A program made the translations under genes and the position numbers. The notes below the pieces were generated by a model. The model was not told the DNA's origin. It ran no database searches and worked only from the letters and a program-made list of their open reading frames with translations. From Synergistaceae bacterium (GTDB lineage Bacteria; Synergistota; Synergistia; Synergistales; Synergistaceae), in contig JAISRP010000159.1 in assembly GCA_031273585.1 (NCBI GenBank), positions 1 through 15,640 on the forward strand: a stretch of 15,640 bases of DNA, given 5' to 3'. This document shows positions 1-14,560 of this stretch, piece by piece; the stretch's first letter is position 1; each line of letters opens with the position of its first letter.

Positions 1-533
1 ACCCCTATCTCGTACAGGTTGTTGCCCTTTGAGTCTATTACGACGGTGGCGGGGAAGTCGCGCACCGTCAGTTTGCGAATGGCCTCGGAGCCCAGGTCCT
101 CGTAGCACACCATCTCGCACGCGGTAATCGTCTTGGCTATCAGGGCGGCCGCTCCACCTATCGCTCCGAAGTACACGGCCCCGTGGGTCTTCATGCTGTC
201 TATCACGTCCTGGGACCTCTTGCCCTTGCCTATCATCCCGCGCAGCCCGAGCCCTATGAGGCGGGGCGCGTAGGCGTCCATGCGGTAGCTCGTCGTCGGG
301 CCGGCGGAGCCTATCACCTGGCCCGGCTTGGCGGGGGTGGGGCCGACGTAGTATATTATGGCGTCCTTTATGTCTATCGGCAGCTCCTTGCCCTGGTCCA
401 GAAGCTCGACCAGGCGGGCGTGGGCCGCGTCCCGCGCCGTGTAGACGACCCCGTTCAGAAGGACGGTATCCCCGGCTCGCAGCGACTCTGCCACTTCCTT
501 GCTCATCGGTGTTGTTATAACTTTATCGGGCAT
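1..533 (-). CDS. Fumarate hydratase class I, beta subunit (C-terminal end beyond the window)
   Basis: Small subunit of the two-subunit, oxygen-sensitive [4Fe-4S] fumarase that interconverts malate and fumarate in the cytoplasm. The visible 177 residues carry the family motifs YTARDAAH (about 31-38), the substrate-site segment SAGPTTSYRMD (76-86), the GAVYFGAIGGAAAL strand-turn (118-131) and a late DFPATVVIDSKGN segment (159-171). The usual length is about 185 residues, so only a few C-terminal residues are missing. The ATG at 533 has an AGGAGGG ribosome site about 8 nt upstream. The gene starts 14 nt after the alpha-subunit stop, which indicates co-translation. L(+)-tartrate dehydratase beta is a close relative and cannot be fully excluded, but the fumarate reductase upstream in the same train favours fumarase. 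Confidence 0.93.
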   Translation of the reverse strand, partial: MPDKVITTPMSKEVAESLRAGDTVLLNGVVYTARDAAHARLVELLDQGKELPIDIKDAIIYYVGPTPAKPGQVIGSAGPTTSYRMDAYAPRLIGLGLRGMIGKGKRSQDVIDSMKTHGAVYFGAIGGAAALIAKTITACEMVCYEDLGSEAIRKLTVRDFPATVVIDSKGNNLYEIG

Positions 534-547
534 TCTCGGTCCCTCCT

Positions 548-1390
548 CTACAGCGACGCCTTCACGTGGCGCGTGATATGACAGTTTATGTTGACGGCTA
601 CAGGCAGCCCCGCTATATGGGTCGGGTGCGTCTCTATATTGAGCCCGAGCGCGGTGGTCCTGCCTCCGAAGCCCTGAGGACCAATGCCCAGCGCGTTGAC
701 CCTCTCCAGCAGCTCCGTCTCCATGTCGCTGTAGTACTTGTCCGGGTGGCGGCGGTTCACCGGGCGCATCAGGGCCTTCTTGGCCAGAAGCGCCACGCGG
801 TCGAACGTGCCGCCTATTCCCACCCCTATCACTATCGGGGGACAGGGATTGGGGCCAGCCAGCCGCACCGTCTCGACCACGAAGTCCTTCACGCCCTTCT
901 CGCCCGCAGCGGGCGGGAACATATTGAGACGGCTCATGTTCTCCGAGCCGAAGCCCTTGGGCGCGAGCGTTATGACGAGGGCGTCCCCGGGGACTATGTC
1001 CACCGTTATGACGGCCGGCGTGTTATCGCCTGTGTTCTTGCGCCGAAGCGGGTCCGCCACTACTGACTTCCGCAGAAATCCCTCGCTGTACCCGCGCCTG
1101 ACTCCCTCGTGAACCGCCTCGTTCAAATCTCCCCCGGTGATGTGCGCGTCCTGCCCGAGCTCCAGAAAGACGCACGTCAGCCCCGTGTCCTGGCAGAGAG
1201 GCATCTTCTCGTTACGGGCTATGTCCATGTTCTCTATAAGCCTGCCAAGGGTGTCGCGCGCCGGCGCCCACGGCTCCGTCTTATGGCAGGAGCGGATGCA
1301 ATCCGACACGTCCTCCGGCAGGAGGTAGTTCGCCTCGGCGCACATGTCGCGTATCTTCTCTGTAATGCTGGCGGCGGTTATCTCCCTCAA
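548..1390 (-). CDS. Fumarate hydratase class I, alpha subunit
   Basis: Large subunit of the iron-sulfur fumarase, 280 residues, the normal size for the family. It supplies the three cysteines that hold the [4Fe-4S] cluster: C66 in PLCQDTG, C183 in PNPCPPIVIG and C270 in NINCH. The glycine-rich GVGIGGTFD segment (189-197) is also present. I chose the TTG at 1390 because a perfect AAGGAGG lies 8 nt upstream and the protein then begins with the expected N-terminus (REITAASITEKI). The frame stays open to 1477, but that extension is translated repeat DNA (R1) and is not credible. It probably feeds fumarate to the reductase encoded upstream. It is separated from that gene by 215 nt containing a terminator-like hairpin, so it may be expressed at a lower level or from its own promoter. 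Confidence 0.93.
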   Translation of the reverse strand: MREITAASITEKIRDMCAEANYLLPEDVSDCIRSCHKTEPWAPARDTLGRLIENMDIARNEKMPLCQDTGLTCVFLELGQDAHITGGDLNEAVHEGVRRGYSEGFLRKSVVADPLRRKNTGDNTPAVITVDIVPGDALVITLAPKGFGSENMSRLNMFPPAAGEKGVKDFVVETVRLAGPNPCPPIVIGVGIGGTFDRVALLAKKALMRPVNRRHPDKYYSDMETELLERVNALGIGPQGFGGRTTALGLNIETHPTHIAGLPVAVNINCHITRHVKASL

Positions 1391-1426
1391 AACTAAGTCC
1401 TCCTTAAAAAAAACAGGTTCAAGACC

Positions 1427-1576
1427 GCGGGCTCCGCCCGCACCCGCCAGGGAGCAAGCTCTCTGGACCCTTTTCACTTTTTTTGATTTTCGCCCTACGG
1501 GCGAAAATCAAAAAAAGAAAATGGGGGTCCGGGGGACAGGTCCCCCGGCGGGGTTTGGGGCGGAGCCCCAAGGTCC
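1427..1576. repeat. Structured intergenic repeat R1 (five-hairpin palindromic element)
   Basis: About 150 bp made of two similar half-modules in inverted orientation around a central T-tract/A-tract hairpin. Each half reads GGGTCC, then a hairpin arm pair, then GGCGGG, then a GGGCGGAGCCC-type hairpin. The same architecture occurs at 10620-10768 (R2). The outermost right hairpin, TTGGGGCGGAGCCCCAA, is identical in the two copies. Other arms differ in sequence but keep pairing. It lies between the fumarate reductase and fumarase genes. Confidence 0.85.
1478..1516. terminator. Bidirectional rho-independent-type terminator in R1
   Basis: An 18-bp perfect stem (1478-1495 with 1499-1516) with a 3-nt loop. 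Its arms begin with seven T and end with seven A, so either strand gives a GC-topped hairpin followed by a U-run. On the minus strand it lies 90 nt after the fumarate reductase stop and 88 nt before the fumarase start. It could therefore end or attenuate the hdr-flx-frd transcript before fumarase. Confidence 0.7.
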
Positions 1577-1605
1577 AGCTCTTGCTCTTTGTTCTCTTGT
1601 GGCCG

Positions 1606-3210
1606 TTACCTGCCCTTGCGGGCGTACTCGGGCAGCAGCTTTGGGGAGTATATGTCGCTCTTTATGCCGGCAGCCTCCCTCTCCTTGTCGTACTTCTCGA
1701 CGTGCTTAAAGTTCAGCCTGCCTGGCGTCGGGACGTGCTTGCTCGCCTCGGAGGCGTTTCTGCCGGCGTTGCGGCCGAACACTATTATGTCGAGAAGGGA
1801 GTTCCCCATGAGGCGGTTTCTGCCGTGGATCCCTCCGACTGCCTCGCCCGCAACGTACAGGTTGTTGATGTTAGTCGTGCGGCCGTCGGCCCTTATCTGA
1901 AGGCCGCCGTTCTGGTAGTGCAGCGTCGGGTAGATGAGCATGGGCACTTCCCTTATGTCGATGTCGTACTTTCCGTACATGCGGAGCATGGCCGGTATGC
2001 GCTTCTCGATGGCGCCCTTGCCGAGGATGACCTCTATCATCGGCGAGTCGAGCCACACGCCCCAGCCCTCGGGCGTCTTTATGCCCTTGCCGCGGGTGCT
2101 GCACTCGCGGATTACCGAGGAGGCCGACACGTCGCGGGTCTCGAGCGGGTTCATGAAGGCTATGCCGTCCACGTTGACGAGCTGAGCCCCGAGCGAGCGG
2201 ACCTTCTCGGTCACGAGCGCGCCGAATATCTGGGCCGGGTACGCGACCCCGGTCGGGTGATACTGAAGCGTGTCCTGATACAGCAGTTTGGCGCCTGCCC
2301 GATAGCCGAGTATCAGTCCGTCCGCGGTGGCCCCGTAGTGATTGGAGGTCGGGAATCCCTGGTAGTGCATACGGCCCGCGCCGCCGGTCGCTATGACGAC
2401 GGTCTTGGCGCGCGCCACGAAGTGCTCGCCAGTCTCCATGTTCTGGAGGAGAGCACCGGCGGCGTTGCCCTGGTCGTCCAGGAGCAGCTCTATGGCTGCG
2501 GTAAAGTCGACGACGGGAATTTTGCGGTTGAACACCTCGTCGCGAAGAGTCCTCATGATGTCGGCCCCGGAGTAGTCGGCCGCGGCGTGCATACGCTTGC
2601 GGGACGTGCCGCCCCCGTGGGTCGTTATCATGGTCCCGTCCTTCTCCTTGTCGAACAGGACGCCCAGTTCGTTCAGCCACTTGACGGCGCCGGGGCCGTC
2701 CATGACGAGCTTGCGGAGAAGGTCCGGCTGGGCGGCGAAGTGCCCGCCTCCGAACGCGTCGAGGTAGTGGATCAGGGGCGAGTCGTTGGGCTTGTCCGCC
2801 GCCTGAATGCCGCCCTCGGCCATCATGGTGTTGGCGTCGCCTATGCGGAGCTTCGTCACCATCATGACGTTCACACCGTTCTCGTGGGCCATGATAGCGG
2901 TGGAGGAGCCGGAGCCGCCGCCGCCTATGACGAGGACGTCCGCGTCGTAGTCGATCTGGTTTAAGTCGATGTCCAGGTCCTTCACGCGGCTGTTGGCCTC
3001 CAGAAGGGCCGCAAGCTCCACCGGGGCCTTCTCGCCCTTGTTGGGGCCGATCTTGAGCGTCGTGAATCCGGCGGCTCTGTAATCGGGGTGATACTCGTTG
3101 AGCAGGTTCGTCTTCTCCTCTGCCGTCATCCTGCGCAGATCGGCGCCTATGCGTGACTCTCTCGTCGCCTCGACCTTCCTGATCGACTCGAACATTTCGG
3201 GTGTATACAT
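1606..3210 (-). CDS. Soluble fumarate reductase, flavoprotein subunit (FrdA/TfrA-like)
   Basis: FAD enzyme of the succinate dehydrogenase/fumarate reductase/L-aspartate oxidase superfamily, 534 residues, predicted to reduce fumarate to succinate in the cytoplasm. A Rossmann FAD motif GGGGSG lies at 96-101. Active-site elements are visible: HPTG at 318-321, a TEKVR segment with R338, PTLHY with H431, and RNRLMGNSLL with R466. The C-terminal FAD loop LYVAGEAVGG is at 451-460. At the position where membrane-bound FrdA has the FAD-linking His (SHT), this protein has N127 in ANTMMAEGG, so FAD should be non-covalent, as in soluble relatives. An N-terminal extension of about 90 residues precedes the FAD fold. 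The start at 3210 has AAGGAGG 8 nt upstream, 13 nt after the FrdB stop. No membrane anchor gene is present. L-aspartate oxidase is an alternative, but the FrdB partner argues against it. Confidence 0.88.
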   Translation of the reverse strand: MYTPEMFESIRKVEATRESRIGADLRRMTAEEKTNLLNEYHPDYRAAGFTTLKIGPNKGEKAPVELAALLEANSRVKDLDIDLNQIDYDADVLVIGGGGSGSSTAIMAHENGVNVMMVTKLRIGDANTMMAEGGIQAADKPNDSPLIHYLDAFGGGHFAAQPDLLRKLVMDGPGAVKWLNELGVLFDKEKDGTMITTHGGGTSRKRMHAAADYSGADIMRTLRDEVFNRKIPVVDFTAAIELLLDDQGNAAGALLQNMETGEHFVARAKTVVIATGGAGRMHYQGFPTSNHYGATADGLILGYRAGAKLLYQDTLQYHPTGVAYPAQIFGALVTEKVRSLGAQLVNVDGIAFMNPLETRDVSASSVIRECSTRGKGIKTPEGWGVWLDSPMIEVILGKGAIEKRIPAMLRMYGKYDIDIREVPMLIYPTLHYQNGGLQIRADGRTTNINNLYVAGEAVGGIHGRNRLMGNSLLDIIVFGRNAGRNASEASKHVPTPGRLNFKHVEKYDKEREAAGIKSDIYSPKLLPEYARKGR

Positions 3211-3223
3211 CACAGCCGCCTCC

Positions 3224-3898
3224 TTACGCCTCAATTTCCCTGTGGTTGTAAAGGTCCTTCAATTCCTCCACCGGTTTTTGCATGAACTCGTCTATTGGCC
3301 CGTCGTACTCCCCGTTCTCTATCTCCCTCACCCGGTTTATCAGGTGGTCGGCGGGGGAGACGAGGTACTTGCCCGTCAGCCTGCGGGCCAGCACTCCGAC
3401 CTGCGGGTGCGATATGCCGGCGGGACAGCGCGAGGAACAGACGCCGCACATGATGCAGTCGAACGACTCAGCGGCGCACTTCTCGTACTCGGCGCGCTGA
3501 GCGTAAGCTATGTACTGCATGACGCGGAGCTCCTGAGTGCAGGCCTTCGTGCAGGCGTTGCAGCCCACGCACTTGTATATCTCGGGGTAGAGCTGCATCA
3601 TGATCTGCTCCGTCGGCTTTATCTCCTCTATGTCGTAGATCTCCTTGATCAGGGGGAAAAACGGCAGGGTCGCCACGTACATCCTGTCGGCCACGGTCGT
3701 CTGACACGCAAGGCAGGCCTTGAGCTCGCGGTCGCCCTCGATGCGGTATATCGTGGCGCAGGCGCCGCAAAATCCGTTGCGGCAGCCGCACCCGCGTACA
3801 AGCTTGTATCCGGCGTACTCAAGGGCCTCCATGATCGTGAGGCCGGCCGGCACCTCGTACTTCTTGCCATACAAAAATACTCTCACCATTTCTTTCAT
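3224..3898 (-). CDS. Fumarate reductase iron-sulfur subunit (FrdB/TfrB-like, HdrC-type C-terminus)
   Basis: Electron-transfer subunit of 224 residues. The N-terminal half is a [2Fe-2S] plant-ferredoxin-type domain with C39, C44, C47 and C62/C65 (C37 also nearby). The second half carries C110-x2-C113-x2-C116-x3-C120 and C148-x2-C151-x2-C154-x3-C158-Pro. The last group is a full four-cysteine site, so it predicts a second [4Fe-4S] rather than the [3Fe-4S] of quinone-linked FrdB. This fits a soluble protein that does not meet quinone and resembles HdrC or the front part of methanogen TfrB. The CCG (HdrB-like) region that follows in TfrB is missing here, but a separate HdrB is encoded in the same train. 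The start at 3898 has a GAGAGGG site about 11 nt upstream; the next in-frame ATG, three codons in, is possible. Confidence 0.88.
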   Translation of the reverse strand: MKEMVRVFLYGKKYEVPAGLTIMEALEYAGYKLVRGCGCRNGFCGACATIYRIEGDRELKACLACQTTVADRMYVATLPFFPLIKEIYDIEEIKPTEQIMMQLYPEIYKCVGCNACTKACTQELRVMQYIAYAQRAEYEKCAAESFDCIMCGVCSSRCPAGISHPQVGVLARRLTGKYLVSPADHLINRVREIENGEYDGPIDEFMQKPVEELKDLYNHREIEA

Positions 3899-3920
3899 TT
3901 TTCTTGCGCCCTCTCTTCCG

Positions 3921-4766
3921 TCAATACTCGTCAGGCATTTCTTCCATCTTGTCGCAGCGGAACACCGGGCCGTCCCTGCACACGTACTTGGCGCCGACGT
4001 TGCACCTTCCGCACTTGCCGATTCCGCACTTCATGCGCAGCTCCAGAGTGGTGTACACCTGACTCTTATCGAAGCCCAGCTCCTGCAGCGCCTTCAGCAC
4101 GAACTTGATCATGATGGGAGGACCGCAGATGAGCGCCGTCTTCGTAGTCGGGAAATTGAGGGATTTTACATAGTCCGGCACGAATGCGACGTTCCCGTCC
4201 CAACCCTCCTGCGGGCGGTCTATCGTCAGGTGGACGTTCACGTCGTCCCCACGGCCGATCCATTCGTTCCTGATCTCGTCGATGTCCACAAGATCGTCCA
4301 TGGAGCGCGCGCCATAGACGATATCGACGGAGGCGTAATTATCCCGGTAATACCGGACATAATTGATTACGGAGCGCAGCGGCGCCAACCCGATCCCTCC
4401 AGCGATAAAGAGCAGGTCCTTACCCTTGAGCTCCGCCTCCACTGGGAAGGCGTTGCCGTACGGGCCGCGAATGGCGACCTGCTGGCCTACTTCCATATCG
4501 TGCAGCCACTCCGTCAGGGAGCCGCACTTCTTGATGCTGAATTCCATGTACTCCTTGTTGGTGGGGGACGACGTTATCGAGAACATCGCCTCGCCTACAC
4601 CAGGAATGGAGAGCATCGCGCACTGACCCGGCATGTGGGAGAAGCAGACGCCGCCGCTTGGTCCGTTGACGCGGAACGTCTTGACGTCGGGCGTGTCCCT
4701 CCTGATGTCGGTCACAACTCCGAGGCGGGGAATCAGCAGGTCGCTCCTGATCTCACTGTCACACAT
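3921..4766 (-). CDS. flxA: FlxA-like FAD/NAD(P)H-binding oxidoreductase subunit
   Basis: NAD(P)H-oxidising flavoprotein of 281 residues in the ferredoxin-NADP reductase/PyrK/hydrogenase-gamma family. FAD site MFSITSSP is at 61-68, the nucleotide-binding GGIGLAPLRS at 123-132 and CGPP at 214-217. A C-terminal [2Fe-2S] site is formed by C247-x4-C252-x2-C255-x7-C263, within the family-typical ELRMKCGIGKCGRC segment. Its ATG overlaps the end of flxB by 8 nt. In the Desulfovibrio FlxABCD-HdrABC complex, FlxA is the entry point for NADH electrons, and the complete gene set here supports the same role. Sulfhydrogenase gamma or AsrB are paralogues of this fold, but no hydrogenase or sulfite reductase catalytic subunit is nearby. 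Whether it prefers NADH or NADPH cannot be read from the sequence. Confidence 0.87.
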   Translation of the reverse strand: MCDSEIRSDLLIPRLGVVTDIRRDTPDVKTFRVNGPSGGVCFSHMPGQCAMLSIPGVGEAMFSITSSPTNKEYMEFSIKKCGSLTEWLHDMEVGQQVAIRGPYGNAFPVEAELKGKDLLFIAGGIGLAPLRSVINYVRYYRDNYASVDIVYGARSMDDLVDIDEIRNEWIGRGDDVNVHLTIDRPQEGWDGNVAFVPDYVKSLNFPTTKTALICGPPIMIKFVLKALQELGFDKSQVYTTLELRMKCGIGKCGRCNVGAKYVCRDGPVFRCDKMEEMPDEY

Positions 4767-5796
4767 TCACTTCCACCCCCAGCGCCTTGATGACCTTCGT
4801 TATATTCATGGAGATAGGGCATTTCGCGACGCACCTCCCGCAGCCAACGCACGAGTACATCCCGTCGTTGTTCGCGGGGAAGTATATGAGCTTGTGCATG
4901 AACCTCTGCCTGAATCGCTCCACCTGGCTCTTGCGGGGATTCCCGTGAGCCATGAGCGTGAAGTCGGAGTACATGCAGGAGTCCCAGCAGCGAAAACGCC
5001 TTATGCCGTGACCGGTGTCGAAATCCTGTATGTCGTAGCACTGACACGTCGGACAGACGTAGGTGCAGGTGCCGCAGCCGACGCAGGCCTGGCTCAGCTC
5101 GCTCCACAGGGGCGAACCGAACTTCTCCTTCAGCGCGCTGCCGTCGAAGCCCTCGAGGCTGAGCGAGCAGAGCGGCAGTCGGGAGACTATGTCCCTTATC
5201 TCCCCCCTGCTCCGCTCGACAAGAGAACTGTCGCCGGAGGCATCGGAGAAGAGGGATTTTACGGTTTCGGTAAGCGCCCTGCCCTTGTCCGTGCGCTCAT
5301 CCCAGTACAGGAAGTCCCCTATGATATAGGTCACGACGTCGCCCTGGGGATCGGCCGCGTCGATGCCGAAGATGCTGCAGAAGCACGTCTCCTCCGGCTC
5401 GGAGCACGCCATCGAGACGACGACTCCGTTCTCCCTGCGGGCCTTGTAGAACGAGTCCACCGGATCGCAGAGAAAAACCCTGTCCAGCACGTCGAGGCTG
5501 CGGGCGTCGCACCCCCGTACCCCGAAGACGACGAACGGCTCCTCCGCGTCGCGGTTCTCGATTATGGAGATGTCCTTCCCCTGCCTCTTGAAGGAGACTA
5601 TGTTCTCAGTCTGGGGGAAGAAAAAATCCTTGGCGGATTTTATCGTCTTCAGCCGGTCCAGGCGTACTTTGGCCTCGGGGGTCCAGGGACCGAAATCCAC
5701 CTGGCCGCCGCGGTCCAGCGGCAGGTAGAGCTTCCTGCCCTCCGCTAACCTCTGAAACAGCTCCCCCATCTTTTCAATGGAAAGTTTCAGCATCAT
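4759..5796 (-). CDS. flxB: FlxB-like iron-sulfur protein (sulfhydrogenase-beta/AsrA-like)
   Basis: A 345-residue electron-transfer protein. The N-terminal two thirds resemble the beta subunit of sulfhydrogenase/AsrA, with GVRGCDA (93-99) and the cysteine group CSEPEETCFC (131-140). The C-terminal third holds two [4Fe-4S] sites: C238-x2-C241-x2-C244-x3-C248-Pro and C316-x2-C319-x2-C322-x3-C326-Pro. Extra cysteines occur at 251, 253, 270 and 274. The ATG at 5796 shares one base with the flxC stop and has AGGAGG 6 nt upstream. A GTG one codon earlier is too close to that site. It probably wires FlxA flavin to the rest of the complex. AsrA-like proteins usually travel with an AsrB-like partner, as flxB and flxA do here. 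Confidence 0.82.
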   Translation of the reverse strand: MMLKLSIEKMGELFQRLAEGRKLYLPLDRGGQVDFGPWTPEAKVRLDRLKTIKSAKDFFFPQTENIVSFKRQGKDISIIENRDAEEPFVVFGVRGCDARSLDVLDRVFLCDPVDSFYKARRENGVVVSMACSEPEETCFCSIFGIDAADPQGDVVTYIIGDFLYWDERTDKGRALTETVKSLFSDASGDSSLVERSRGEIRDIVSRLPLCSLSLEGFDGSALKEKFGSPLWSELSQACVGCGTCTYVCPTCQCYDIQDFDTGHGIRRFRCWDSCMYSDFTLMAHGNPRKSQVERFRQRFMHKLIYFPANNDGMYSCVGCGRCVAKCPISMNITKVIKALGVEVNV

Positions 5797-6779
5797 CACG
5801 CGCCTCCTCTCTCGTGCACGATGCCGGGCTCGACGTCTCCGGTCCTGAACTCCGTCAGAGGAGACTTGCCGTCGACGCTCTCGCCGGACTGATATTCACC
5901 GTAGAAGGCGTTGATATCCTTTATGAACTTGCGGTTCAGCAGGTGCAGCGGGATGTTCTGAGGGCAGACCCTGCTGCACTCACCGCAGTCCGTGCAGCGC
6001 CCGGCGACGTGAAACGCCCTGATTATGTGGAACATGTTCTCCTCGAACGTGTCGGCGTTCGCCTTGGCTATCACCCCGGACCTCGGGTTGTCGAACACGC
6101 ACTTGTTGCACGAGCAGACGGGGCACGCGTTGCGGCAGGCGTTGCAGCGGATGCACCGCGACAGTTCGCCCCTCCAGAACGCAAACCGCTCGCCGGAGGT
6201 CATGCCCTCGAGCTCGCTGACGCGGGCGAATCGGTCGGAGGTCTCCCACTCCCACAGCTCGTCCGGAACGGCGAGCTCGTCGGAGGCCTTGTGCTCCAGC
6301 CCCTTGCACGTGGCGCACTTCTCCAGCAGGACGTCCCCTCTTGCGAATTTTTTATCCCCGTAGAGGGTGTGGATCACGAGATTTTCGCCGAGCTCCTCCA
6401 TCGACTCGATGCCCTTCACGCCGAGAGCCCGGAGTTTTTCTATGTCGAGCATCCCTCCGCAGCCCACTCCTATGACGTACGTCTTCTCCCTGTCGACCTT
6501 GTGCTCCTTCAGAAGATGGTTGAAGCTGTACGTGTCGCAGGGCTTGAGGAAGACCAGAACCCGGCCCTCCTTCTTCGTCGCCTCTATGAGGTACTTGCTC
6601 AGCATGGCTGCGGAGAAACCGTTGTACACGAGCTCGTCCAGGGACTCCTCCGTGTCGAAGAACGACGGGGTTGGATCGTAGTAAAACTCGCCGCTCTTCC
6701 AGCCCAGCACCCGCGTCACGGCGCCGTCCTTCAGCAGCTCGCCCGCTCTGCTACGCATCATATCTCTGACTCTACGCAT
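5796..6779 (-). CDS. flxC: FlxC-like iron-sulfur protein (FdhB/FrhB-related)
   Basis: A 327-residue iron-sulfur protein resembling formate dehydrogenase/F420 hydrogenase beta-type proteins. Cysteines in the first half (C81 in KPCDTY, C107 in GVGCGG, C155 and C158 in CATCKG) precede two canonical [4Fe-4S] sites: C209-x2-C212-x2-C215-x3-C219-Pro and C262-x2-C265-x2-C268-x3-C272-Pro. Additional cysteines lie at 222, 224 and 227. The frame is open far upstream, but that part is a shadow of flxD. The ATG at 6779 has GGAGG 7 nt upstream, overlaps flxD by 22 nt and gives the expected N-terminus. The C-terminal tail of about 50 residues after the last cluster lacks motifs. Assignment as FlxC rests on order (hdrA-flxD-flxC-flxB-flxA) plus the twin-ferredoxin end. 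Confidence 0.78.
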   Translation of the reverse strand: MRRVRDMMRSRAGELLKDGAVTRVLGWKSGEFYYDPTPSFFDTEESLDELVYNGFSAAMLSKYLIEATKKEGRVLVFLKPCDTYSFNHLLKEHKVDREKTYVIGVGCGGMLDIEKLRALGVKGIESMEELGENLVIHTLYGDKKFARGDVLLEKCATCKGLEHKASDELAVPDELWEWETSDRFARVSELEGMTSGERFAFWRGELSRCIRCNACRNACPVCSCNKCVFDNPRSGVIAKANADTFEENMFHIIRAFHVAGRCTDCGECSRVCPQNIPLHLLNRKFIKDINAFYGEYQSGESVDGKSPLTEFRTGDVEPGIVHERGGA

Positions 6780-7213
6780 CGGATATCCTCCAGCCTCCTG
6801 CACTCGCCCAGCGCGCTGATAGTCTCCGCAAACTGGTTCATAGTGTTGGCGAACTTCGCGCCCTCCGCTGCGGAAACCCACTCCACCCTCGTGCGGCCCC
6901 TCTCTATGCCCAGATAGTCGAGCATGCTGAAGAGAAGCGCCATCCTCCTGCGGGCGAAATAGTTGCCCGAGGTGTAGTGGCAGTCGCCGGGGTGGCAGCC
7001 GCACATGATAACCCCGTCAGCCCCCCTCTGGAATGCCCTGAGGATGAAGAGCGGGTTGACGCGGCATGAGCACGGCACGCGGATGACCTTGACGTTGACC
7101 GGGTAGTTCAGCCTGCTCGACCCCGCGAGGTCGGCGCCGGCATAGCTGCACCAGTTGCAGCAGAAGGCCACGATCAAGGGCTTGAAGGCCGCGCCTTCCT
7201 CGTTTATCGGCAT
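6758..7213 (-). CDS. flxD: FlxD / MvhD-type [2Fe-2S] subunit
   Basis: Small 151-residue MvhD-family protein that links an electron-input module to HdrA. The family cysteine pattern is complete: FCCNWCSYAGAD (C18, C19, C22), PCSCR (C48, C50) and CGCHPGDCHY (C71, C73, C78). The ATG at 7213 has GGAGGT 9 nt upstream and overlaps the hdrA stop by 10 nt, so translation is coupled. In methanogens MvhD connects hydrogenase to HdrA. Here it is followed by flxC, flxB and flxA instead of hydrogenase genes, so NAD(P)H rather than hydrogen is the likely donor. MvhD-type proteins also serve formate dehydrogenase and MetFV complexes, but neither set is present in the window. Confidence 0.92.
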   Translation of the reverse strand: MPINEEGAAFKPLIVAFCCNWCSYAGADLAGSSRLNYPVNVKVIRVPCSCRVNPLFILRAFQRGADGVIMCGCHPGDCHYTSGNYFARRRMALLFSMLDYLGIERGRTRVEWVSAAEGAKFANTMNQFAETISALGECRRLEDIRCVESEI

Positions 7214-9189
7214 ATCGCGTCCACCTCCGCCATGATTTGCAGGTTCGTGAAGCCCTTCAGGTCCATGGCCCCGGACGGACAGGTCACAGTGCAGGCGCCG
7301 CAGCCCTGGCAGATCGCCTCGTTGACGCACGACACCCTGCGGGTCTCCCTGACTCCGTGATCCACCACGAGATGCTCCTCATAGGTGATGGCGCCGTAGG
7401 GGCAGACGAGCTCGCAGGTGGAGCACCCGTTGCAGAGGGGCTCGTTGCAGGCGGCGACGCAAGGGTTGCCGACCAGCTTGTCCTTCGACAGAAGCCCTAT
7501 CACCTTCGACGCGGCGGCGCCCGCCTGAGCCACGGTGTCGGGGATATCCTTCGGCCCCTGGCAGAGGCCGGAGAGGTATATGCCGGCAGTCGGGCTCTCC
7601 ACGGGACGCAGCTTGGGGTGCGCCTCGGTGAAAAAGTCGTTCGTGTCCATGCTCGCGGTGAACATCGTGCCGAGGCTCCGGGCCGTCGGGTCGGGCTCGA
7701 TAGCCGCGGCCAGCACGACCATGTCCGCTTCGATTATGACCTGCTTGTCGGCTATGAGGTCGGAACCCTGCACTATCAGGCGGCCGTCCTCCTCCGCCAC
7801 CTTGCCGACCATGCCCTTTATGTAGTGGACCCCGTACTCCTCGACCGCCCTGCGGTAAAATTCGTCGAAGCTCTTGCCCGGCGTGCGGACGTCGATATAG
7901 AACACGTACACCTCCGTGTCGGGATACTTCTCCCGCAGCAGCATCGCGTGCTTGGCCGTGTACATGCAGCATATCTTGGAGCAGTACGTCTTGCCGCACT
8001 CGACCGTGGCCCTCGACCCTACGCACTGGACGAAGACGACGGTCTTAGGGGGCTCGTGGTCGGACGGACGCAGGACCTTGCCCTTCGTCGGGCCGGCGGC
8101 GTTGCATATCCGCTCGAACTCGAGCGACGTTATGACGTCGGGGCACTGGTTATACTGGAACTCGTCGTAACTCTCCAGGGAGATGGGCTTGAATCCGGTG
8201 GCGAGCACTATCGCCCCGTACTGCCTCGTTATTATCTCGTCCTCCTGGGCGTAGTCGATTGCCTTGGCGGTGCACACCTTCTCGCATACTCCGCACTTGC
8301 CGGTCTGGAACTTGATGCACGACTCCCTGTCTATGACTGGGACGTTGGGAATGGCCTGGGCGAACGGGATGTAGATCGCGCTGCGGTTGCAGAGACCCTG
8401 GTTGAACTCGCTCTTCGCCTTCTTGGAAGGGCACTTCTCGATGCACACTCCGCAGCCGGTACACAGATCCGAGTTGACCCCGCGGGCCTTCTTCCTGATG
8501 TTGACCGTGAAGTTGCCGACGAAGCCGGAGACGCTCTCCACCTCGCTGTACGTGAAGAGGCTTATCTTCTCGTGAGCCGAGGCGTCAACCATCTTAGGCG
8601 TCAGGATGCAGGCCGCGCAGTCGAGCGTCGGGAAGGTCTTGTCGAGCATGGCCATCTTCCCGCCTATCGTCGGGGTCTTCTCCACTATGTCGACCTCGTA
8701 GCCGGCATCCGCCACGTCAAGTGCCGTCTGTATTCCGGCTATCCCCCCGCCTATCACGAGGGCGCGCTTTATCACCTGGCTCTCGCCGGCGATTAAGGGC
8801 ACGTTGCGGTTCAGCTTCGCGACCGCGGCGCGGGCCAGTATTATGGCCTTCTTCGTACCCTCCTCCTTGTCCCTGTGTATCCACGAACACTGCTCGCGAA
8901 TGTTGGCTATCTCGACCATGTACGGGTTGAGGCCGGCTACCGCCGCCGTCTTGCGGAAGGTAGCCTCGTGCATCCTGGGGGAGCACGCGCAGACCACTAT
9001 CCCAGTCAGTCCGTGTTCGGCTATCGCGTTTCGGATCGCCGACTGTCCTCCCTCGGAGCACATGTACTGGTAGTTGGTCGAGAACACCACGCCGGGTTCC
9101 GACAACGACGCCTGCGCCACGGCCTCCACGTCCACGGTCGCCGCTATGTTGCTACCGCACCAGCAGACAAACACACCAATCTTTTGCAA
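7204..9189 (-). CDS. hdrA: HdrA, FAD-containing electron-bifurcating subunit
   Basis: Core flavoprotein of heterodisulfide-reductase-type complexes, about 661 residues, where flavin-based bifurcation takes place. It shows the N-terminal IGVFVCWCGSNIA segment, a central FAD Rossmann motif VIGGGIAG near 145-152, the conserved FPTLDCAACILTPKM stretch, and the CVGSR...CSKICCMYTAKHA segment near 390-415. [4Fe-4S] sites lie near 243-253 (C-x2-C-x2-C-x3-C-Pro), 299-306, and twice at the C-terminus near 586-596 and 627-637. The TTG at 9189 is preferred because GAGGAA lies about 9 nt upstream. An in-frame GTG at 9198 directly abuts that site and would be poorly placed; the difference is three residues. 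It is flanked by hdrC and flxD, the standard partners. Confidence 0.95.
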   Translation of the reverse strand: MQKIGVFVCWCGSNIAATVDVEAVAQASLSEPGVVFSTNYQYMCSEGGQSAIRNAIAEHGLTGIVVCACSPRMHEATFRKTAAVAGLNPYMVEIANIREQCSWIHRDKEEGTKKAIILARAAVAKLNRNVPLIAGESQVIKRALVIGGGIAGIQTALDVADAGYEVDIVEKTPTIGGKMAMLDKTFPTLDCAACILTPKMVDASAHEKISLFTYSEVESVSGFVGNFTVNIRKKARGVNSDLCTGCGVCIEKCPSKKAKSEFNQGLCNRSAIYIPFAQAIPNVPVIDRESCIKFQTGKCGVCEKVCTAKAIDYAQEDEIITRQYGAIVLATGFKPISLESYDEFQYNQCPDVITSLEFERICNAAGPTKGKVLRPSDHEPPKTVVFVQCVGSRATVECGKTYCSKICCMYTAKHAMLLREKYPDTEVYVFYIDVRTPGKSFDEFYRRAVEEYGVHYIKGMVGKVAEEDGRLIVQGSDLIADKQVIIEADMVVLAAAIEPDPTARSLGTMFTASMDTNDFFTEAHPKLRPVESPTAGIYLSGLCQGPKDIPDTVAQAGAAASKVIGLLSKDKLVGNPCVAACNEPLCNGCSTCELVCPYGAITYEEHLVVDHGVRETRRVSCVNEAICQGCGACTVTCPSGAMDLKGFTNLQIMAEVDAICR

Positions 9190-9244
9190 TAAACTCACTT
9201 CCTCATATCGGTTTGTTTCGTTCCCCCGAATCTACTGCGATTCC

Positions 9245-9637
9245 TCACTTGCTGTACTTCCTGAAGGCGCTCACTATCAACTGCTGCGGTATCTTCTCAT
9301 CCAGAAGGGCCGGGATGGCCTCGGGCCTCAGCCTGTTGCCGGCCAGCGGACGGATTACCTCGAGCCTCACCGCCTCGATGAGGTTAGCGGGCTCGACGCC
9401 GCGGGGACACCTCTCCACGCACGCGAAGCAGGACAGGCACCTCCAGAGGGACTTCGACTGCATCAGAGCGAATATATCCCCCTCCTCCACCATGGAGACG
9501 AACCTGTGGGGGTGTATGTCCATCTCGTCGAAGTTAGGGCAGGTCGCGGAGCACTTTCCGCACTTCATGCACTTCCTCACGTTCACCCCGCTCGCCCGGA
9601 TGATCGTCTCAGCCTCTTTTCTCTCGTCAGCGTGCAT
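9245..9637 (-). CDS. hdrC: HdrC, ferredoxin-like subunit
   Basis: A 130-residue electron relay between HdrA and HdrB. It has two [4Fe-4S] sites with the HdrC spacing: C23-x2-C26-x2-C29-x3-C33-Pro and C67-x2-C70-x2-C73-x3-C77-Pro. The region between them (PNFDEMDIHPHRFVSMVEEG) and the following PRGVEPANLIEAVR are typical of the family. Its ATG at 9637 overlaps the hdrB stop by 11 nt. It is somewhat shorter than methanogen HdrC (about 185-190 residues), as is common for bacterial versions. The C-terminal cluster half is similar in layout to the last half of the FrdB-like protein in this operon, so the two could compete for, or hand over at, the same docking face. Confidence 0.94.
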   Translation of the reverse strand: MHADERKEAETIIRASGVNVRKCMKCGKCSATCPNFDEMDIHPHRFVSMVEEGDIFALMQSKSLWRCLSCFACVERCPRGVEPANLIEAVRLEVIRPLAGNRLRPEAIPALLDEKIPQQLIVSAFRKYSK

Positions 9638-10436
9638 GAACCAGGCCTCCCTCCGGCTCCTTCACCCCGAGCGACTCGGCCAGCAGCTCCGTGAAGTAGA
9701 CCACTGGAACCTCGCCGGTCCCGTTCTCGTTCAGGTTGTAGAGGCACACGGGACACGCGGTTATGATCGTGTCCGCCCCGCGCTTCACCGCCGAGTTCAT
9801 TATCTTCCTCGACATCTCGCGGGCCACGTCGCGGGCCTCTATCGAGATATAGCCGCCGCAGCACTCGTTGCGGTACGGATACCTGATCGGTTCGGCCCCG
9901 AGAGCCGCGATAAAATCCTCCAGAATCGAGGGATTCTCCGGGTTGTCGAACCGCATCACCGTGCTCGGGCGAAGGAGCATACAGCCGTAATAGGCCGATA
10001 TCCTGCGCCCCTTCATGGGCTGAGTTACGCGCTCCCTGATCTTGTCGAACCCGATCTCGTCGCGCAGCATCTCGAGGTAGTGGACCACCTTCGTCTCGCC
10101 GGAGTACGGGTCGTCGAGATCCATATAACTGTTCACTTTCGCGCGCATGTCATCGTCGGTCTGCATGTCGTTGTTTACTCTCTTTATAACGTGGTGACAC
10201 GCAGAGCACAGAGTCAGAAGCGGATTTTTCAGCCGCTTCGCCCCGTCGAGCGCGCGAACCGCGGACAGCCTCGTCGCAAGCTCGTCGCGCGCTATGGGGT
10301 AGACGGCTCCGCAGCACTGCCATTCCGGCAGCTCCTCCATAATGACGCCAAGCGCCTCCGCCGCCTGCCTCGCTGCCACATCCAGCTCGGCGGCTCTCGT
10401 TTTAAGCGTGCATCCTGGATAGTAACTAAATTTCAT
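9627..10436 (-). CDS. hdrB: HdrB, non-cubane cluster (CCG-domain) subunit
   Basis: Terminal subunit of HdrABC, 269 residues with two complete CCG domains: C9, C41-C42-G, C77-x2-C80, then C152, C192-C193-G, C228-x2-C231. These are the ten cysteines that bind the two non-cubane [4Fe-4S] clusters in the methanogen enzyme, where the CoM-CoB heterodisulfide is reduced. The ATG at 10436 gives the usual MKFSYYPGC N-terminus. The frame extends to an ATG at 10490, but that adds 18 unfamiliar residues. It is the first gene of the operon, after a roughly 180-nt leader. The organism is not expected to make CoM/CoB, so its natural substrate is open: a bacterial thiol/disulfide, or simple electron transfer to the fumarate reductase. 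Confidence 0.95.
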   Translation of the reverse strand: MKFSYYPGCTLKTRAAELDVAARQAAEALGVIMEELPEWQCCGAVYPIARDELATRLSAVRALDGAKRLKNPLLTLCSACHHVIKRVNNDMQTDDDMRAKVNSYMDLDDPYSGETKVVHYLEMLRDEIGFDKIRERVTQPMKGRRISAYYGCMLLRPSTVMRFDNPENPSILEDFIAALGAEPIRYPYRNECCGGYISIEARDVAREMSRKIMNSAVKRGADTIITACPVCLYNLNENGTGEVPVVYFTELLAESLGVKEPEGGLVHAR

Positions 10437-10619: not shown

Positions 10620-10768
10620 GTGGGCGCCGCCCACGCCCGCCGGGGGACCAGTCCCCCGGACCCCCATCTGTTTTTTTGTTTTCAGCCGTAGGCTGAAAAC
10701 AAAAAAACTTATTGGAGGTCCAGGAGGCAGTGCCTCCTGGCGAGGTTTGGGGCGGAGCCCCAAGGTCC
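10620..10768. repeat. Structured intergenic repeat R2 (second copy of R1 family)
   Basis: About 149 bp with the same five-hairpin plan as R1: GTGGGCGCCGCCCAC, CCGGGGGACCAGTCCCCCGG, a central T/A-tract hairpin, CCAGGAGGCAGTGCCTCCTGG-like arms, and TTGGGGCGGAGCCCCAA. Arms differ from R1 at many bases, but pairing is kept by compensatory change. It separates the dehydrogenase gene from the hdr operon. Translated frames across it are artefacts. Confidence 0.85.
10671..10707. terminator. Bidirectional rho-independent-type terminator in R2
   Basis: A 17-bp perfect stem (10671-10687 with 10691-10707), loop GTA, with seven T at one foot and seven A at the other. On the minus strand it lies about 100 nt after the dehydrogenase stop, so it probably ends that transcript and insulates the hdr operon, whose promoter would then lie between about 10450 and 10620. 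Confidence 0.75.
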
Positions 10769-10803: not shown

Positions 10804-11745
10804 TCAGATGCCGGCGAAGAAGGGTTTTATGGCCTCCGCGCTCTTGTGGAGCGCGGACTCCTCCTCGGGCGCGAGCTTGGGCAGAAGGCCGCTCGAGATG
10901 CCCTTCGCGCCCACCGCGAACGGGAGGCTCACGCAGACGCCGCTGACGCCGTACTGGCCGTTCAGGACCTGCCCCACCGGCAGAATCTTGTTCGTGTCGT
11001 TCAGGACGTTCTTGCATATCTCGCACACCGAGAGGGCTATGGCGAAGAACGTCGCGCCCTTGTTCTTTATTACCCTGCCTCCGGCCTCGCGGACATCCGT
11101 CAGGACGTCCTCCCTCCAGGTCGGGCTCTTCTCGTGCGCATGATGCTCTATGTACTCCGCCGCGTTCACGCCGAAGATGGAGGAGAGGGACCAGGGGATG
11201 AACGACGTGTCGCCGTGCTCGCCCAGTACGTATGCCTCGATGTTGGAGCAGCACACCCCTATGCGCTCGGACAGGATGGCGCGCAGGCGGGAGGTGTCAA
11301 GGAGCGTCCCGGAGCCTATGACGCGGCTCGTCGGGAAACCGGAGAGCTTCGTCACGGCATAGGTCAGGATGTCGACTGGGTTGCTCACGACGACGTAGAT
11401 GGCGTCCGGCGCGTTCTTGACTATGGGCGGAACGACGTCCTCCTTGAAGAGGGCCACGTTCGTGTTGACCAGGTCGATCCTGGTCATGCCGGGCTTGCGG
11501 GGCTTGCCGAGCGTGAAGACGACTATGTCAGACCCCGCGGCGTCGGCGTAGTCCCCGGAGTAAATCTTGAACGGGGAGAGAAACGGCGCTCCCTGGACGA
11601 TATCCGCCGCCTCGCCGATGGCCTTCTCCTTGAAGATGTCGATTAAGACTATCTCCGACGCTATCCCCTGAACCGCCAGCGCGTACGCCGTCGTAGCCCC
11701 TACGTTGCCCGCTCCCAGTATCGTGATCTTTCTGCCCTTTGACAT
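10804..11745 (-). CDS. LDH-family 2-hydroxyacid dehydrogenase, predicted malate dehydrogenase
   Basis: NAD-dependent L-2-hydroxyacid dehydrogenase of 313 residues. The NAD motif GAGNVG is at 11-16, with D36 at the end of the second strand favouring NAD over NADP. Catalytic residues are intact: R89 (LDH numbering 109), D150 (168), R153 (171) and H177 (195) in GEHGD. Segments such as VVSNPVDILTYAV and GSGTLLDTSRLR look like lactate dehydrogenase. However, the specificity position 102 is R83 in PRKPGMTR, where lactate dehydrogenases have Gln. Arg there is the classic determinant for oxaloacetate/malate. I therefore predict LDH-like malate dehydrogenase, although automatic annotation would probably say L-lactate dehydrogenase. 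The ATG at 11745 follows GGGAGG. The gene lies just upstream of the fumarate-respiration operon on the same strand, separated by R2. Confidence 0.87.
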   Translation of the reverse strand: MSKGRKITILGAGNVGATTAYALAVQGIASEIVLIDIFKEKAIGEAADIVQGAPFLSPFKIYSGDYADAAGSDIVVFTLGKPRKPGMTRIDLVNTNVALFKEDVVPPIVKNAPDAIYVVVSNPVDILTYAVTKLSGFPTSRVIGSGTLLDTSRLRAILSERIGVCCSNIEAYVLGEHGDTSFIPWSLSSIFGVNAAEYIEHHAHEKSPTWREDVLTDVREAGGRVIKNKGATFFAIALSVCEICKNVLNDTNKILPVGQVLNGQYGVSGVCVSLPFAVGAKGISSGLLPKLAPEEESALHKSAEAIKPFFAGI

Positions 11746-12184: not shown

Positions 12185-12190
12185 TATATG

Positions 12191-12297
12191 TATAGCCGAT
12201 TGAATAAACCGCGTGGAATTTTGCCGATGGCGGTTGCGGTGACAACAAAGGGTTTCAATCTTTACCCTTTAGGCTTCTAATGTTAAATTGCTATATA
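12191..12297 (-). mobile_element. MITE-like element, copy A1 (107 bp)
   Basis: Near-identical inverted copy of 14454-14560: I count 2 differences over 107 bp. The ends are imperfect inverted repeats (TATAGCCGATTGAA and TATATAGCAATTTAA). The inner part shares ATTTAAC...GCCT.AAGGGTAAAGATT with the B copies, so A and B are subfamilies of one element. It has no coding capacity. No clear target duplication is visible. Confidence 0.75.
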
Positions 12298-12312
12298 CAC
12301 CCCCGATTCCAG

Positions 12313-13477: not shown

Positions 13478-13780
13478 TCATACAGCCCGAGCCTGGTTTT
13501 CAAACGGATTGTGCAGTTCCAGCCCGAGAGCGTTCGATATTTTTGCGAGAGTGGCTGCTGTGAAATTTTCCTCGCCGTTCTCCCAGCGGGAGACCATAAC
13601 CTGTGACACGCCAAGTTTATCGGCCAAGACTTTTTGCGTAATTCCCAGCGCGTGCCGCCTGCGTTGGATGCTTACGGCGATGGAGGCGATAAATTCGGCG
13701 GCGGCGCGCTCCTCAGCGGAAAGTGAATCGGCGAGCCAGTGGTTTTCCTCGGCGCGAGCAATTTTTTCGCTTACGTCCAT
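13478..13780 (-). CDS. HigA-like antitoxin, XRE-family DNA-binding protein
   Basis: A 100-residue protein with a helix-turn-helix of the Cro/CI (XRE) type at about 38-90: IQRRRHALGITQKVLADKLG, then SQVMVSRWENGEENFTAATL. The N-terminal 35 residues are acidic and helical (SEKIARAEENHWLADSLSAEE), the likely toxin-binding part. I use the ATG at 13780, 2 nt after the restored toxin stop, with GGAGG 10 nt upstream; a GTG two codons earlier is possible. Toxin-before-antitoxin order with near-contact spacing is the HigBA arrangement. The antitoxin would normally repress its own promoter. Here it is intact while its toxin is disrupted, so it may survive as an orphan regulator. Confidence 0.85.
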   Translation of the reverse strand: MDVSEKIARAEENHWLADSLSAEERAAAEFIASIAVSIQRRRHALGITQKVLADKLGVSQVMVSRWENGEENFTAATLAKISNALGLELHNPFENQARAV

Positions 13781-13782
13781 AA

Positions 13783-14429: not shown

Positions 14430-14453
14430 CGCTGACGGCTCAGTTCAATATGG

Positions 14454-14560
14454 TATATAGCAATTTAACATTAGAAGCCTAAAGGGTAAAGATTGAAAAC
14501 CTTTGCTGTCACCGCAACCGCCATCGGCAAAATTCCACGCGGTTTATTCAATCGGCTATA
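14454..14560 (+). mobile_element. MITE-like element, copy A2 (107 bp)
   Basis: Starts TATATAGCAATTTAACATTA and ends TTCAATCGGCTATA. It is the inverted twin of A1 with about 105 of 107 bases equal, and it shares the inner AAGGGTAAAGATT block with B2. It lies between the toxin-antitoxin promoter and the phosphorylase gene. No target duplication is recognised. Confidence 0.75.

What the first reader, a model, noticed from the sequence alone, without database searches (positions are those of the whole stretch)
548..10436. Candidate electron-bifurcating fumarate reductase: HdrABC-FlxABCD in one operon with soluble FrdAB and fumarase
Seen: eleven same-strand genes with overlaps of 1-22 nt place a full Flx-Hdr set directly before a fumarate reductase pair with no membrane anchor, then fumarase. 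Known: FlxABCD-HdrABC oxidises NADH and bifurcates electrons to ferredoxin and a CCG-protein acceptor; methanogen TfrAB couples fumarate to the thiols that Hdr regenerates. Inference: the complex runs 2 NADH + oxidised ferredoxin + fumarate to reduced ferredoxin + succinate. The fumarate/succinate potential (about +30 mV) is ample to drive this. It would make cytoplasmic fumarate respiration energy-conserving through ferredoxin, without quinones.
Basis: partly seen in the sequence, partly recalled or inferred. Interest (0 to 1): 0.85.

Follow-up and report, generated by a model that had tools for sequence, protein, structure and literature searches.

The report
Bifurcating NADH–fumarate reductase operon, gut anaerobes
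A nine-gene block in gut-type bacteria very probably makes one soluble enzyme complex that uses NADH to turn fumarate into succinate and to charge ferredoxin at the same time; the idea was already in print for one bacterium, and this survey shows that the gene block is common and was rarely seen taken apart.

Summary
The minus strand carries hdrB-hdrC-hdrA-flxD-flxC-flxB-flxA-frdB-frdA, then class I fumarase, with malate dehydrogenase upstream, in a Synergistota MAG. Of the best 80 of 560 relatives in species genomes, 57 show the same nine-gene order; the other 23 are cut by a contig end, and none shows another order. FrdA and this HdrA occur in the same 7 of 149 Synergistota genomes and together in 39 of 291 Clostridia genomes (FrdA 40, HdrA 44). 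One distant genome has the blocks rearranged, all nine genes still adjacent. Fumarase is supplied by unrelated enzymes (FumAB or FumC, never both). In 77 operons the HdrA residues proposed to mark bifurcation, the FrdA active-site residues and the cluster cysteines of HdrB, HdrC and FrdB are invariant. FrdB lacks a CCG domain, so direct HdrBC-to-FrdB transfer is favoured over a TfrAB-like thiol cycle. The hypothesis is not new: the same operon type and proposal were published for Pseudoclostridium thermosuccinogenes (2019-2020). I found no biochemical proof. Verdict: new member of a known but unproven kind; the added value is breadth and strict linkage in cultured species.

The parts
10804..11745 (-). 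probable malate dehydrogenase of the LDH-like family (313 aa), Arg in the substrate loop GKPRKPGMTR
   Evidence: Pfam Ldh_1_N/Ldh_1_C; NCBIfam names it L-LDH; the residue is Arg in 46 of 46 homologues lying within 1.5 kb upstream of hdrB on the same strand, out of 62 loci with both genes
9627..10436 (-). HdrB (269 aa), two CCG motifs for two non-cubane [4Fe-4S] clusters
   Evidence: Pfam CCG with 2 stretches; PDB matches 8rvv_B, 7bkb_B, 5odc_B; all ten Cys 77/77
9245..9637 (-). HdrC (130 aa), two [4Fe-4S] motifs
   Evidence: eight Cys 77/77
7204..9198 (-). HdrA (664 aa), candidate bifurcating FAD subunit; E362 and K416 align with E356 and K409 of Methanothermococcus HdrA
   Evidence: 768.7 bits to NF040770, cut-off 1100 not reached; aligned to 5odc_A; both residues 77/77
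6758..7213 (-). FlxD (MvhD-like, 151 aa)
   Evidence: Pfam FlpD, 3.6e-54; start set at 7213
5796..6779 (-). FlxC, FeS protein resembling the FdhB of methanogen Hdr complexes
   Evidence: 7bkb_E FdhB, E 4.3e-24; order conserved
4759..5799 (-). FlxB, FeS protein of the sulfhydrogenase beta/AsrA type
   Evidence: 9nez_B, E 9.4e-48; NF040829, NF040833 and TIGR02910 below cut-off
3921..4766 (-). FlxA, FAD/NAD-binding subunit, presumed NADH entry
   Evidence: Pfam NAD_binding_1, FAD_binding_6, DHODB_Fe-S_bind
3224..3898 (-). FrdB (224 aa): [2Fe-2S] plus two CxxCxxCxxxC [4Fe-4S] motifs, no CCG domain
   Evidence: Cys 39,44,47,65,110,113,116,120,148,151,154,158 are 77/77
1606..3210 (-). FrdA (534 aa), catalytic flavoprotein with an extra N-terminal part (1-87) and Asn127 where E. 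coli FrdA has its FAD-linking His
   Evidence: AlphaFold mean pLDDT 78.1, pTM 0.83; Foldseek best hits E. coli FrdA, TM 0.59
548..1390 (-). fumarase class I alpha subunit, TTG start after AAGGAGG
   Evidence: NF004885, 405.5 bits over cut-off 276; Pfam Fumerase; sequence
3..533 (-). fumarase class I beta subunit (open at the window edge)
   Evidence: NF005310, 306.4 bits over cut-off 238; Pfam Fumerase_C

Best explanation
The nine genes hdrBCA-flxDCBA-frdBA encode one soluble NADH:fumarate/ferredoxin oxidoreductase. FlxA takes a hydride from NADH, FlxB/FlxC/FlxD carry electrons to the FAD of HdrA, and HdrA splits the pair: one electron goes to ferredoxin, the other through HdrC and HdrB into the clusters of FrdB and the FAD of FrdA, which reduces fumarate. 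Net: 2 NADH + Fd(ox) + fumarate -> 2 NAD+ + Fd(red) + succinate. Malate dehydrogenase and fumarase encoded nearby supply the fumarate; reduced ferredoxin is used by Rnf (where present) or other ferredoxin enzymes. Shown here: gene content, order, co-occurrence, conserved residues. Inferred: physical complex, direct HdrBC-FrdB transfer, bifurcation, direction, ferredoxin use.
For: Nine-gene order in 57 of 80 loci, the other 23 cut within 180 nt of a contig end, none in another order. FrdA and HdrA in the same 7 of 149 Synergistota genomes, 5 of 52 genera. In 291 Clostridia genomes FrdA in 40, HdrA in 44, both in 39; of the five with HdrA only, the one above 50% identity (G202) sits on a contig that ends inside flxA, before frdB would follow. 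G438 (FrdA 59% identical) has fum-frdBA-hdrBCA-flxDCBA: new block order, same nine genes. In 77 operons a fumarase lies within 4.5 kb in 60: FumA in 25 (FumB in 23), FumC in 35, never FumA and FumC together; MDH in 56. HdrA E362 and K416, FrdA active-site residues and the cluster Cys of HdrB, HdrC and FrdB 77/77. In 29 genomes with the operon: SdhA/FrdA model over cut-off 0, MenD over cut-off 0, MqnC over cut-off 0, DsrC no match; RnfC over cut-off in 23. Published: the P. thermosuccinogenes operon rises about 4-fold under CO2 limitation, not significant for every subunit (passages of PMC7282089).
Against: I found no measurement of a complex, its activity or its stoichiometry for this family. 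The evolutionary-rate test did not single out FrdB with HdrB or HdrC (partial correlations -0.16 and 0.08); FrdA had weak signals with FlxC (0.33) and HdrB (0.28), FrdA-FrdB 0.46. The FrdB model was poor (pLDDT 51.9), so no interface could be judged. RnfC was below cut-off in 6 of 29 genomes. 8 of 29 genomes have further SdhA/FrdA-like matches at E <= 1e-40 under the cut-off, some scoring above this FrdA (best 339.9 bits in G159), which I did not identify; G160 has a below-cut-off MenD match of 172.9 bits (cut-off 244.2). In the window, hairpins and repeats separate fumarase and MDH from the nine genes, and 17 of 77 operons show no fumarase within 4.5 kb, several with little contig room.
Confidence: 0.72

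Rival explanations
1. Thiol-coupled pair: Flx-Hdr reduces a disulfide (protein or small molecule) and FrdAB is a thiol:fumarate reductase like methanogen TfrAB; no direct contact is needed.
For: HdrB keeps both CCG motifs, as in disulfide-reducing HdrB; TfrA is the best-scoring named family for FrdA, 313.7 bits; tfrAB is associated with flx-hdr in tubeworm symbionts (PMC6315080 passages).
Against: FrdB has no CCG domain, the thiol site of TfrB as recalled; TfrA cut-off 718 not reached; DsrC found in 0 of 29 genomes; coenzymes M and B are not expected in these bacteria (general knowledge).
Confidence: 0.12
2. Complex without bifurcation: a plain soluble NADH:fumarate reductase, electrons passing Flx -> Hdr -> Frd, ferredoxin not involved.
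For: A 2026 theoretical pathway of Blautia luti uses a NADH-dependent fumarate reductase without ferredoxin (PMC12773636 passages). A soluble NADH-dependent FRD of Hydrogenobacter thermophilus is known to me from recall only.
Against: HdrA keeps E362 and K416 in 77 of 77 operons, residues proposed to mark bifurcating HdrA (PMC12054007, section 6), though that paper finds them in most HdrA. A 353 mV drop would be wasted.
Confidence: 0.1
3. It runs in reverse: a confurcating succinate dehydrogenase that uses reduced ferredoxin to push electrons from succinate to NAD+.
For: HdrA-type bifurcation is reversible in principle (general knowledge).
Against: Asn127 replaces the FAD-linking His of E. coli FrdA in 77 of 77, and loss of covalent FAD is recalled to abolish succinate oxidation in E. 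coli FRD; MDH and fumarase nearby fit the reductive branch; P. thermosuccinogenes makes succinate.
Confidence: 0.06

Closest known systems
'Succinate operon' of Pseudoclostridium thermosuccinogenes (PMC7282089, passages; it cites Koendjbiharie & van Kranenburg 2019 preprint, not held and not read)
   Same: fumarase, Flx-Hdr genes, two fumarate reductase genes, then a possible succinate transporter; same proposal of fumarate-linked ferredoxin reduction
   Different: Fumarase gene at the other end of the operon; the window has fumarase alpha/beta after frdA. Protein identity between the two was not tested here.
flxABCD-hdrABC-tfrAB-korABCD clusters of tubeworm symbionts and Thioflavicoccus (PMC6315080, passages)
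   Same: Flx-Hdr interspersed with a soluble fumarate reductase, direct electron shuttling suggested
   Different: Includes 2-oxoglutarate:ferredoxin oxidoreductase, serves the reverse TCA cycle in sulfur oxidisers, and is called thiol:fumarate reductase
FlxABCD-HdrABC of Desulfovibrio vulgaris (Ramos et al. 2015, seen only as a reference)
   Same: Same seven subunits
   Different: Acceptor there is thought to be DsrC (recalled); DsrC was found in 0 of 29 genomes with this operon
Methanogen HdrABC-Mvh/Fdh complexes (5odc, 7bkb, 8rvu)
   Same: HdrA, HdrB, HdrC, MvhD-like FlxD, FdhB-like FlxC
   Different: NADH input in place of H2/formate/F420; fumarate reductase in place of CoM-S-S-CoB
Methanogen thiol:fumarate reductase TfrAB
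   Same: Soluble FrdA-like subunit with FeS partner
   Different: TfrB carries a CCG domain (recalled); FrdB here does not
8-methylmenaquinol:fumarate reductase (MFR) with HdrB-like SdhE
   Same: An HdrB-like CCG protein works with a FrdAB pair (recalled); window HdrB scores 148.0 bits on the SdhE model and 151.4 on HdrB
   Different: Membrane-associated and quinone-linked; the SdhE cut-off (500) is not reached

Membership tests
[quoted passage not shown]
[quoted passage not shown]
   E362 and K416 in 77 of 77; criterion from PMC12054007, which also says most HdrA have them
[quoted passage not shown]
   all Cys of both proteins 77/77
[quoted passage not shown]
   needs purified enzyme
Fumarate reductase/succinate dehydrogenase (complex II) flavoprotein family | substrate-binding and catalytic residues (H318, T334, E335, R359, H431, R466 here) | tested here: met
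   aligned to E. coli FrdA 1kf6, 77 of 77; residue roles recalled
Fumarate reductase/succinate dehydrogenase (complex II) flavoprotein family | membrane anchor subunit(s) | tested here: not met
   none among the genes of the block
Fumarate reductase/succinate dehydrogenase (complex II) flavoprotein family | covalent FAD histidine | tested here: not met
   Asn127 in 77 of 77; flavocytochrome and aspartate-oxidase relatives also lack it (recalled)
Fumarate reductase/succinate dehydrogenase (complex II) flavoprotein family | over the cut-off of model TIGR01812 | tested here: not met
   259 bits against 567.3; 0 of 29 genomes with the operon have a match over it, though 29 of 29 match below it
Methanogen TfrAB thiol:fumarate reductase | TfrA over model cut-off | tested here: not met
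   NF004900 313.7 bits, cut-off 718
Methanogen TfrAB thiol:fumarate reductase | CCG domain on the FeS subunit | tested here: not met
   FrdB 224 aa; no CCG in Pfam; TfrB model (488 positions) matched only at 18-174
MFR-type complex with SdhE | SdhE over model cut-off | tested here: not met
   NF042965 148 bits, cut-off 500
P. thermosuccinogenes succinate operon type | fumarase + Flx-Hdr genes + two Frd genes together | tested here: met
   window; description of the published operon from passages
P. thermosuccinogenes succinate operon type | protein-level orthology with that operon | not tested

The most novel reading that the evidence does not exclude
HdrB, whose paired non-cubane clusters are known for cleaving disulfides, here works as a pure electron bridge into a fumarate reductase that has lost its anchor, its covalent FAD and any thiol site. 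This would be a dedicated, thiol-free and quinone-free, ferredoxin-generating class of fumarate reductase, and the main or only one in many gut Clostridia and some Synergistota.
Probability: 0.5. Interest if true: 0.72.

Novelty: new member of a known kind. Interest (0 to 1): 0.5.

Why it matters
Succinate is a major product and cross-feeding metabolite in animal guts. If this complex bifurcates, each succinate made by Clostridia without menaquinone would also yield reduced ferredoxin, hence extra ion gradient where Rnf is present. ATP budgets that assume a plain NADH-dependent fumarate reductase, such as one of the 2026 Blautia luti schemes, would need revision for carriers of the block (I did not test B. 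luti itself). Named carriers in my survey include Blautia glucerasea (L022) and [Clostridium] asparagiforme (L008), so the question can be tested directly.

Tried and rejected
Tried without result. (1) AlphaFold of FrdB gave pLDDT 51.9; not used further. (2) Mirror-tree partial correlations over 77 operons did not point to a FrdB-HdrB or FrdB-HdrC contact. (3) PDB sequence search with FrdB found mostly general ferredoxin-like matches. (4) Rfam found nothing at gathering scores in the window. (5) The FrdA model is weak (pLDDT under 50) over several active-site loops.

Considered and rejected. TfrAB membership (no CCG domain, score under cut-off). Membrane-bound QFR (no anchor in the block; MenD and MqnC over cut-off in 0 of 29 genomes with the operon). 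L-lactate dehydrogenase as the upstream gene's function (Arg at the substrate position in 46 of 46). DsrC as the Hdr acceptor (0 of 29). Horizontal transfer into Synergistota is suggested by the patchy 5 of 52 genera, but no tree was made.

Limits. The 29 genomes are the seven Synergistota carriers plus 22 that I picked from the named loci; a thirtieth, L004, was asked for but not held. For the 77 operons, five duplicate loci (L001, L100, L128, L129, L136) and L119 were dropped first, L082-L118 were not used, 124 loci were examined, 81 had all nine genes at 80% coverage, and 4 with identical sequences were dropped; G438 (L165) did not pass the coverage filter. FumC identity rests on one representative plus BLAST. 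In some searches only the top 4-5 candidates per genome were scored, so distant HdrA copies may be missed. Fisher p-values ignore kinship. Most genomes are MAGs. 'Synergistota' and 'Clostridia' are inferred from named relatives. A first script used a wrong frame for FlxD; it was redone.
Full report
What is there. The window is contig C293 of a 1.77 Mb, 82.6% complete assembly. Its closest named relatives are Synergistaceae MAGs (FrdA 93% identical), which places it in Synergistota. From recall only, the isolate names of those MAGs look like termite-gut samples. All genes of interest are on the minus strand. In transcription order: malate dehydrogenase (11745-10804), a 367-nt gap with hairpins, HdrB, HdrC, HdrA, FlxD, FlxC, FlxB, FlxA, FrdB, FrdA, a gap of about 215 nt, fumarase alpha, fumarase beta. 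The count (ten genes inside the span, not eleven) and 'overlaps of 1-22 nt' are only partly right.

The proteins. HdrA scores 768.7 bits on an HdrA2 model (cut-off 1100) and aligns end to end with methanogen HdrA (5odc). The two residues that a 2025 survey reports as proposed marks of bifurcating HdrA, E356 and K409 of Methanothermococcus (PMC12054007, section 6 read), align with E362 and K416 here and are present in 77 of 77 operons. The same paper finds them in most HdrA, so this shows competence, not proof. FlxD is MvhD-like; the best solved match of FlxC is the FdhB of a methanogen Hdr-formate complex (7bkb_E); FlxB resembles sulfhydrogenase beta; FlxA has FAD and NAD domains. HdrB has both CCG motifs and HdrC two [4Fe-4S] motifs, every cysteine of both 77 of 77. 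A few cysteines of HdrA, FlxA and FlxD are not fully invariant.

FrdA keeps the substrate residues of complex II: H318, T334, E335, R359, H431, R466, aligned to E. coli FrdA, 77 of 77. The histidine that binds FAD covalently in E. coli (recalled) is Asn127 in 77 of 77. FrdA has a confidently modelled N-terminal extension (residues 1-87; whole model pLDDT 78.1, pTM 0.83, several active-site loops under 50), and its best structural matches are E. coli FrdA (TM 0.59). Pfam finds no C-terminal complex II domain. FrdB has one [2Fe-2S] motif and two four-cysteine [4Fe-4S] motifs and no CCG domain. That separates it from TfrB, where a CCG domain is the thiol site (recalled).

Conservation of the block. 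In 57 of the 80 the order HdrB-HdrC-HdrA-FlxD-FlxC-FlxB-FlxA-FrdB-FrdA is intact; the other 23 carry only its 3' part and begin within 180 nt of a contig end; none shows another order. MDH is directly upstream in 42 of the 57 and FumAB directly downstream in 22. In an even sample of 291 genomes of the class of Blautia, 40 have FrdA: 30 show the full order, 9 are cut by a contig end and one is rearranged. The rearranged one, G438, has fumarase-FrdB-FrdA-HdrB-HdrC-HdrA-FlxD-FlxC-FlxB-FlxA followed by an aldehyde:ferredoxin oxidoreductase, so the nine genes stay together through a rearrangement at 59% FrdA identity.

Co-occurrence. In 149 genomes of the own phylum FrdA is in 7 and HdrA is in the same 7, spread over 5 of 52 genera; six of the 7 carry the block on one contig, and G142 shows pieces on two contigs, FlxD and FlxC not seen. 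In 291 Clostridia genomes FrdA is in 40, HdrA in 44, both in 39. G241 (FrdA only) has a contig that ends at flxC. Of the five with HdrA only, G202 (73%) ends inside flxA just before frdB would follow, G192 (47%) is an HdrA-FlxD set next to what reads as an iron hydrogenase, and G207, G235 and G325 carry 38-40% identical HdrA-Flx sets of another kind. So Flx-Hdr without Frd exists, but not in this subfamily as sampled. A termite-gut Deferribacterota paper assigns HdrABC-FlxABCD to sulfite reduction (PMC12887300 passages), another sign that Flx-Hdr has several partners.

Neighbours. In 77 distinct operons a fumarase lies within 4.5 kb in 60: class I FumA in 25 (FumB in 23), class II FumC in 35, never FumA and FumC together (one FumC tested and over cut-off). 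Of the 17 without, several have little contig room. Malate dehydrogenase is near in 56 of 77, with Arg at the deciding position in 46 of 46 checked. A permease of the aspartate/alanine exchanger family lies downstream of frdA in 34 of 77, a candidate succinate exporter. Two unrelated fumarases filling the same role is strong evidence that the unit serves malate-fumarate-succinate.

Cellular setting. In 29 genomes with the operon, 0 have MenD over cut-off (22 match below it, best 172.9 bits in G160, cut-off 244.2), 0 have MqnC over cut-off (19 match below it), 0 have SdhA/FrdA over cut-off (all 29 match below it, 21 of them once at E <= 1e-40, 8 with further unidentified matches), 0 have any DsrC match, and 23 have RnfC over cut-off. 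The control genomes rang over the cut-off in 7, 2, 6, 1 and 4 of 14 respectively.

Mechanism. E0' of fumarate/succinate is +33 mV and of NADH -320 mV (PMC5861303 passages); ferredoxin is -400 to -500 mV (PMC12773636 passage). With ferredoxin at -500 mV, 2 NADH + Fd + fumarate gives a net of about 173 mV for two electrons, roughly -33 kJ/mol (my arithmetic). This is ample. The route NADH-FlxA-FlxB/C-FlxD-HdrA, then ferredoxin on one branch and HdrC-HdrB-FrdB-FrdA-fumarate on the other, uses the conserved cofactor sites. Direct transfer is preferred over a thiol step because FrdB lacks a CCG domain and DsrC was not found. Neither a structural model of FrdB nor rate correlations could show the contact.

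Relation to print. The same operon type (fumarase, Flx-Hdr genes, two Frd genes, possible succinate transporter), its roughly 4-fold induction under CO2 limitation (not significant for all subunits), and the assumption that fumarate reduction is linked to ferredoxin reduction are in PMC7282089 (passages), which credits a 2019 preprint by Koendjbiharie and van Kranenburg (not held, unread). A similar coupling was proposed for tubeworm symbionts (PMC6315080 passages). My searches (listings, of which I opened a few papers by passages) showed me no experimental proof and no survey of its breadth; subscription papers and preprints are not in that library. The Blautia luti study (passages) reports fumarate reductase activity with methyl viologen and one scheme with NADH as donor, and does not mention hdr or flx; Blautia glucerasea carries the full block (L022), B. 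luti was not tested.

Verdict. Real, widespread and already proposed. The added result is that this fumarate reductase subfamily is, in what I sampled, practically inseparable from its own Flx-Hdr subfamily across Clostridia and some Synergistota, which makes the bifurcation hypothesis more likely and testable in named cultures.

Noticed in passing
window 1555-1572 and 10747-10764; 97 places in G000: An 18-nt GC-rich, nearly palindromic motif, part of a multi-hairpin intergenic repeat, flanks the nine-gene block on both sides; the motif (up to 1 mismatch) is counted 37 forward and 60 reverse in the own genome, many near contig ends, 0 for the reversed control.
   Followed up: partly
window 12189-12298 and 14453-14562: A 110-nt inverted repeat, 98% complementary, encloses 2.15 kb with an unassigned 292-aa protein, an HTH regulator (13478-13786) and a 99-aa protein without family match; possible mobile unit.
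   Followed up: no
L165:4415-6121: Aldehyde:ferredoxin oxidoreductase directly after flxA in the rearranged G438 cluster: a ferredoxin-linked partner beside the operon.
   Followed up: no
L072:11612-12934 and 33 other operons: Asp-Al_Ex permease downstream of frdA in 34 of 77 operons, a candidate succinate exporter; family checked for two of them.
   Followed up: partly
window 10804-11745: NCBIfam would name this L-lactate dehydrogenase although the substrate loop has Arg, as in malate dehydrogenase; possibly a common misannotation in these operons.
   Followed up: yes
G133 contig C142 (L088): A second FrdA copy (86% identical) on a 3.4-kb contig of the same assembly, with FrdB and fumarase: a real second operon or a strain mixture.
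   Followed up: no
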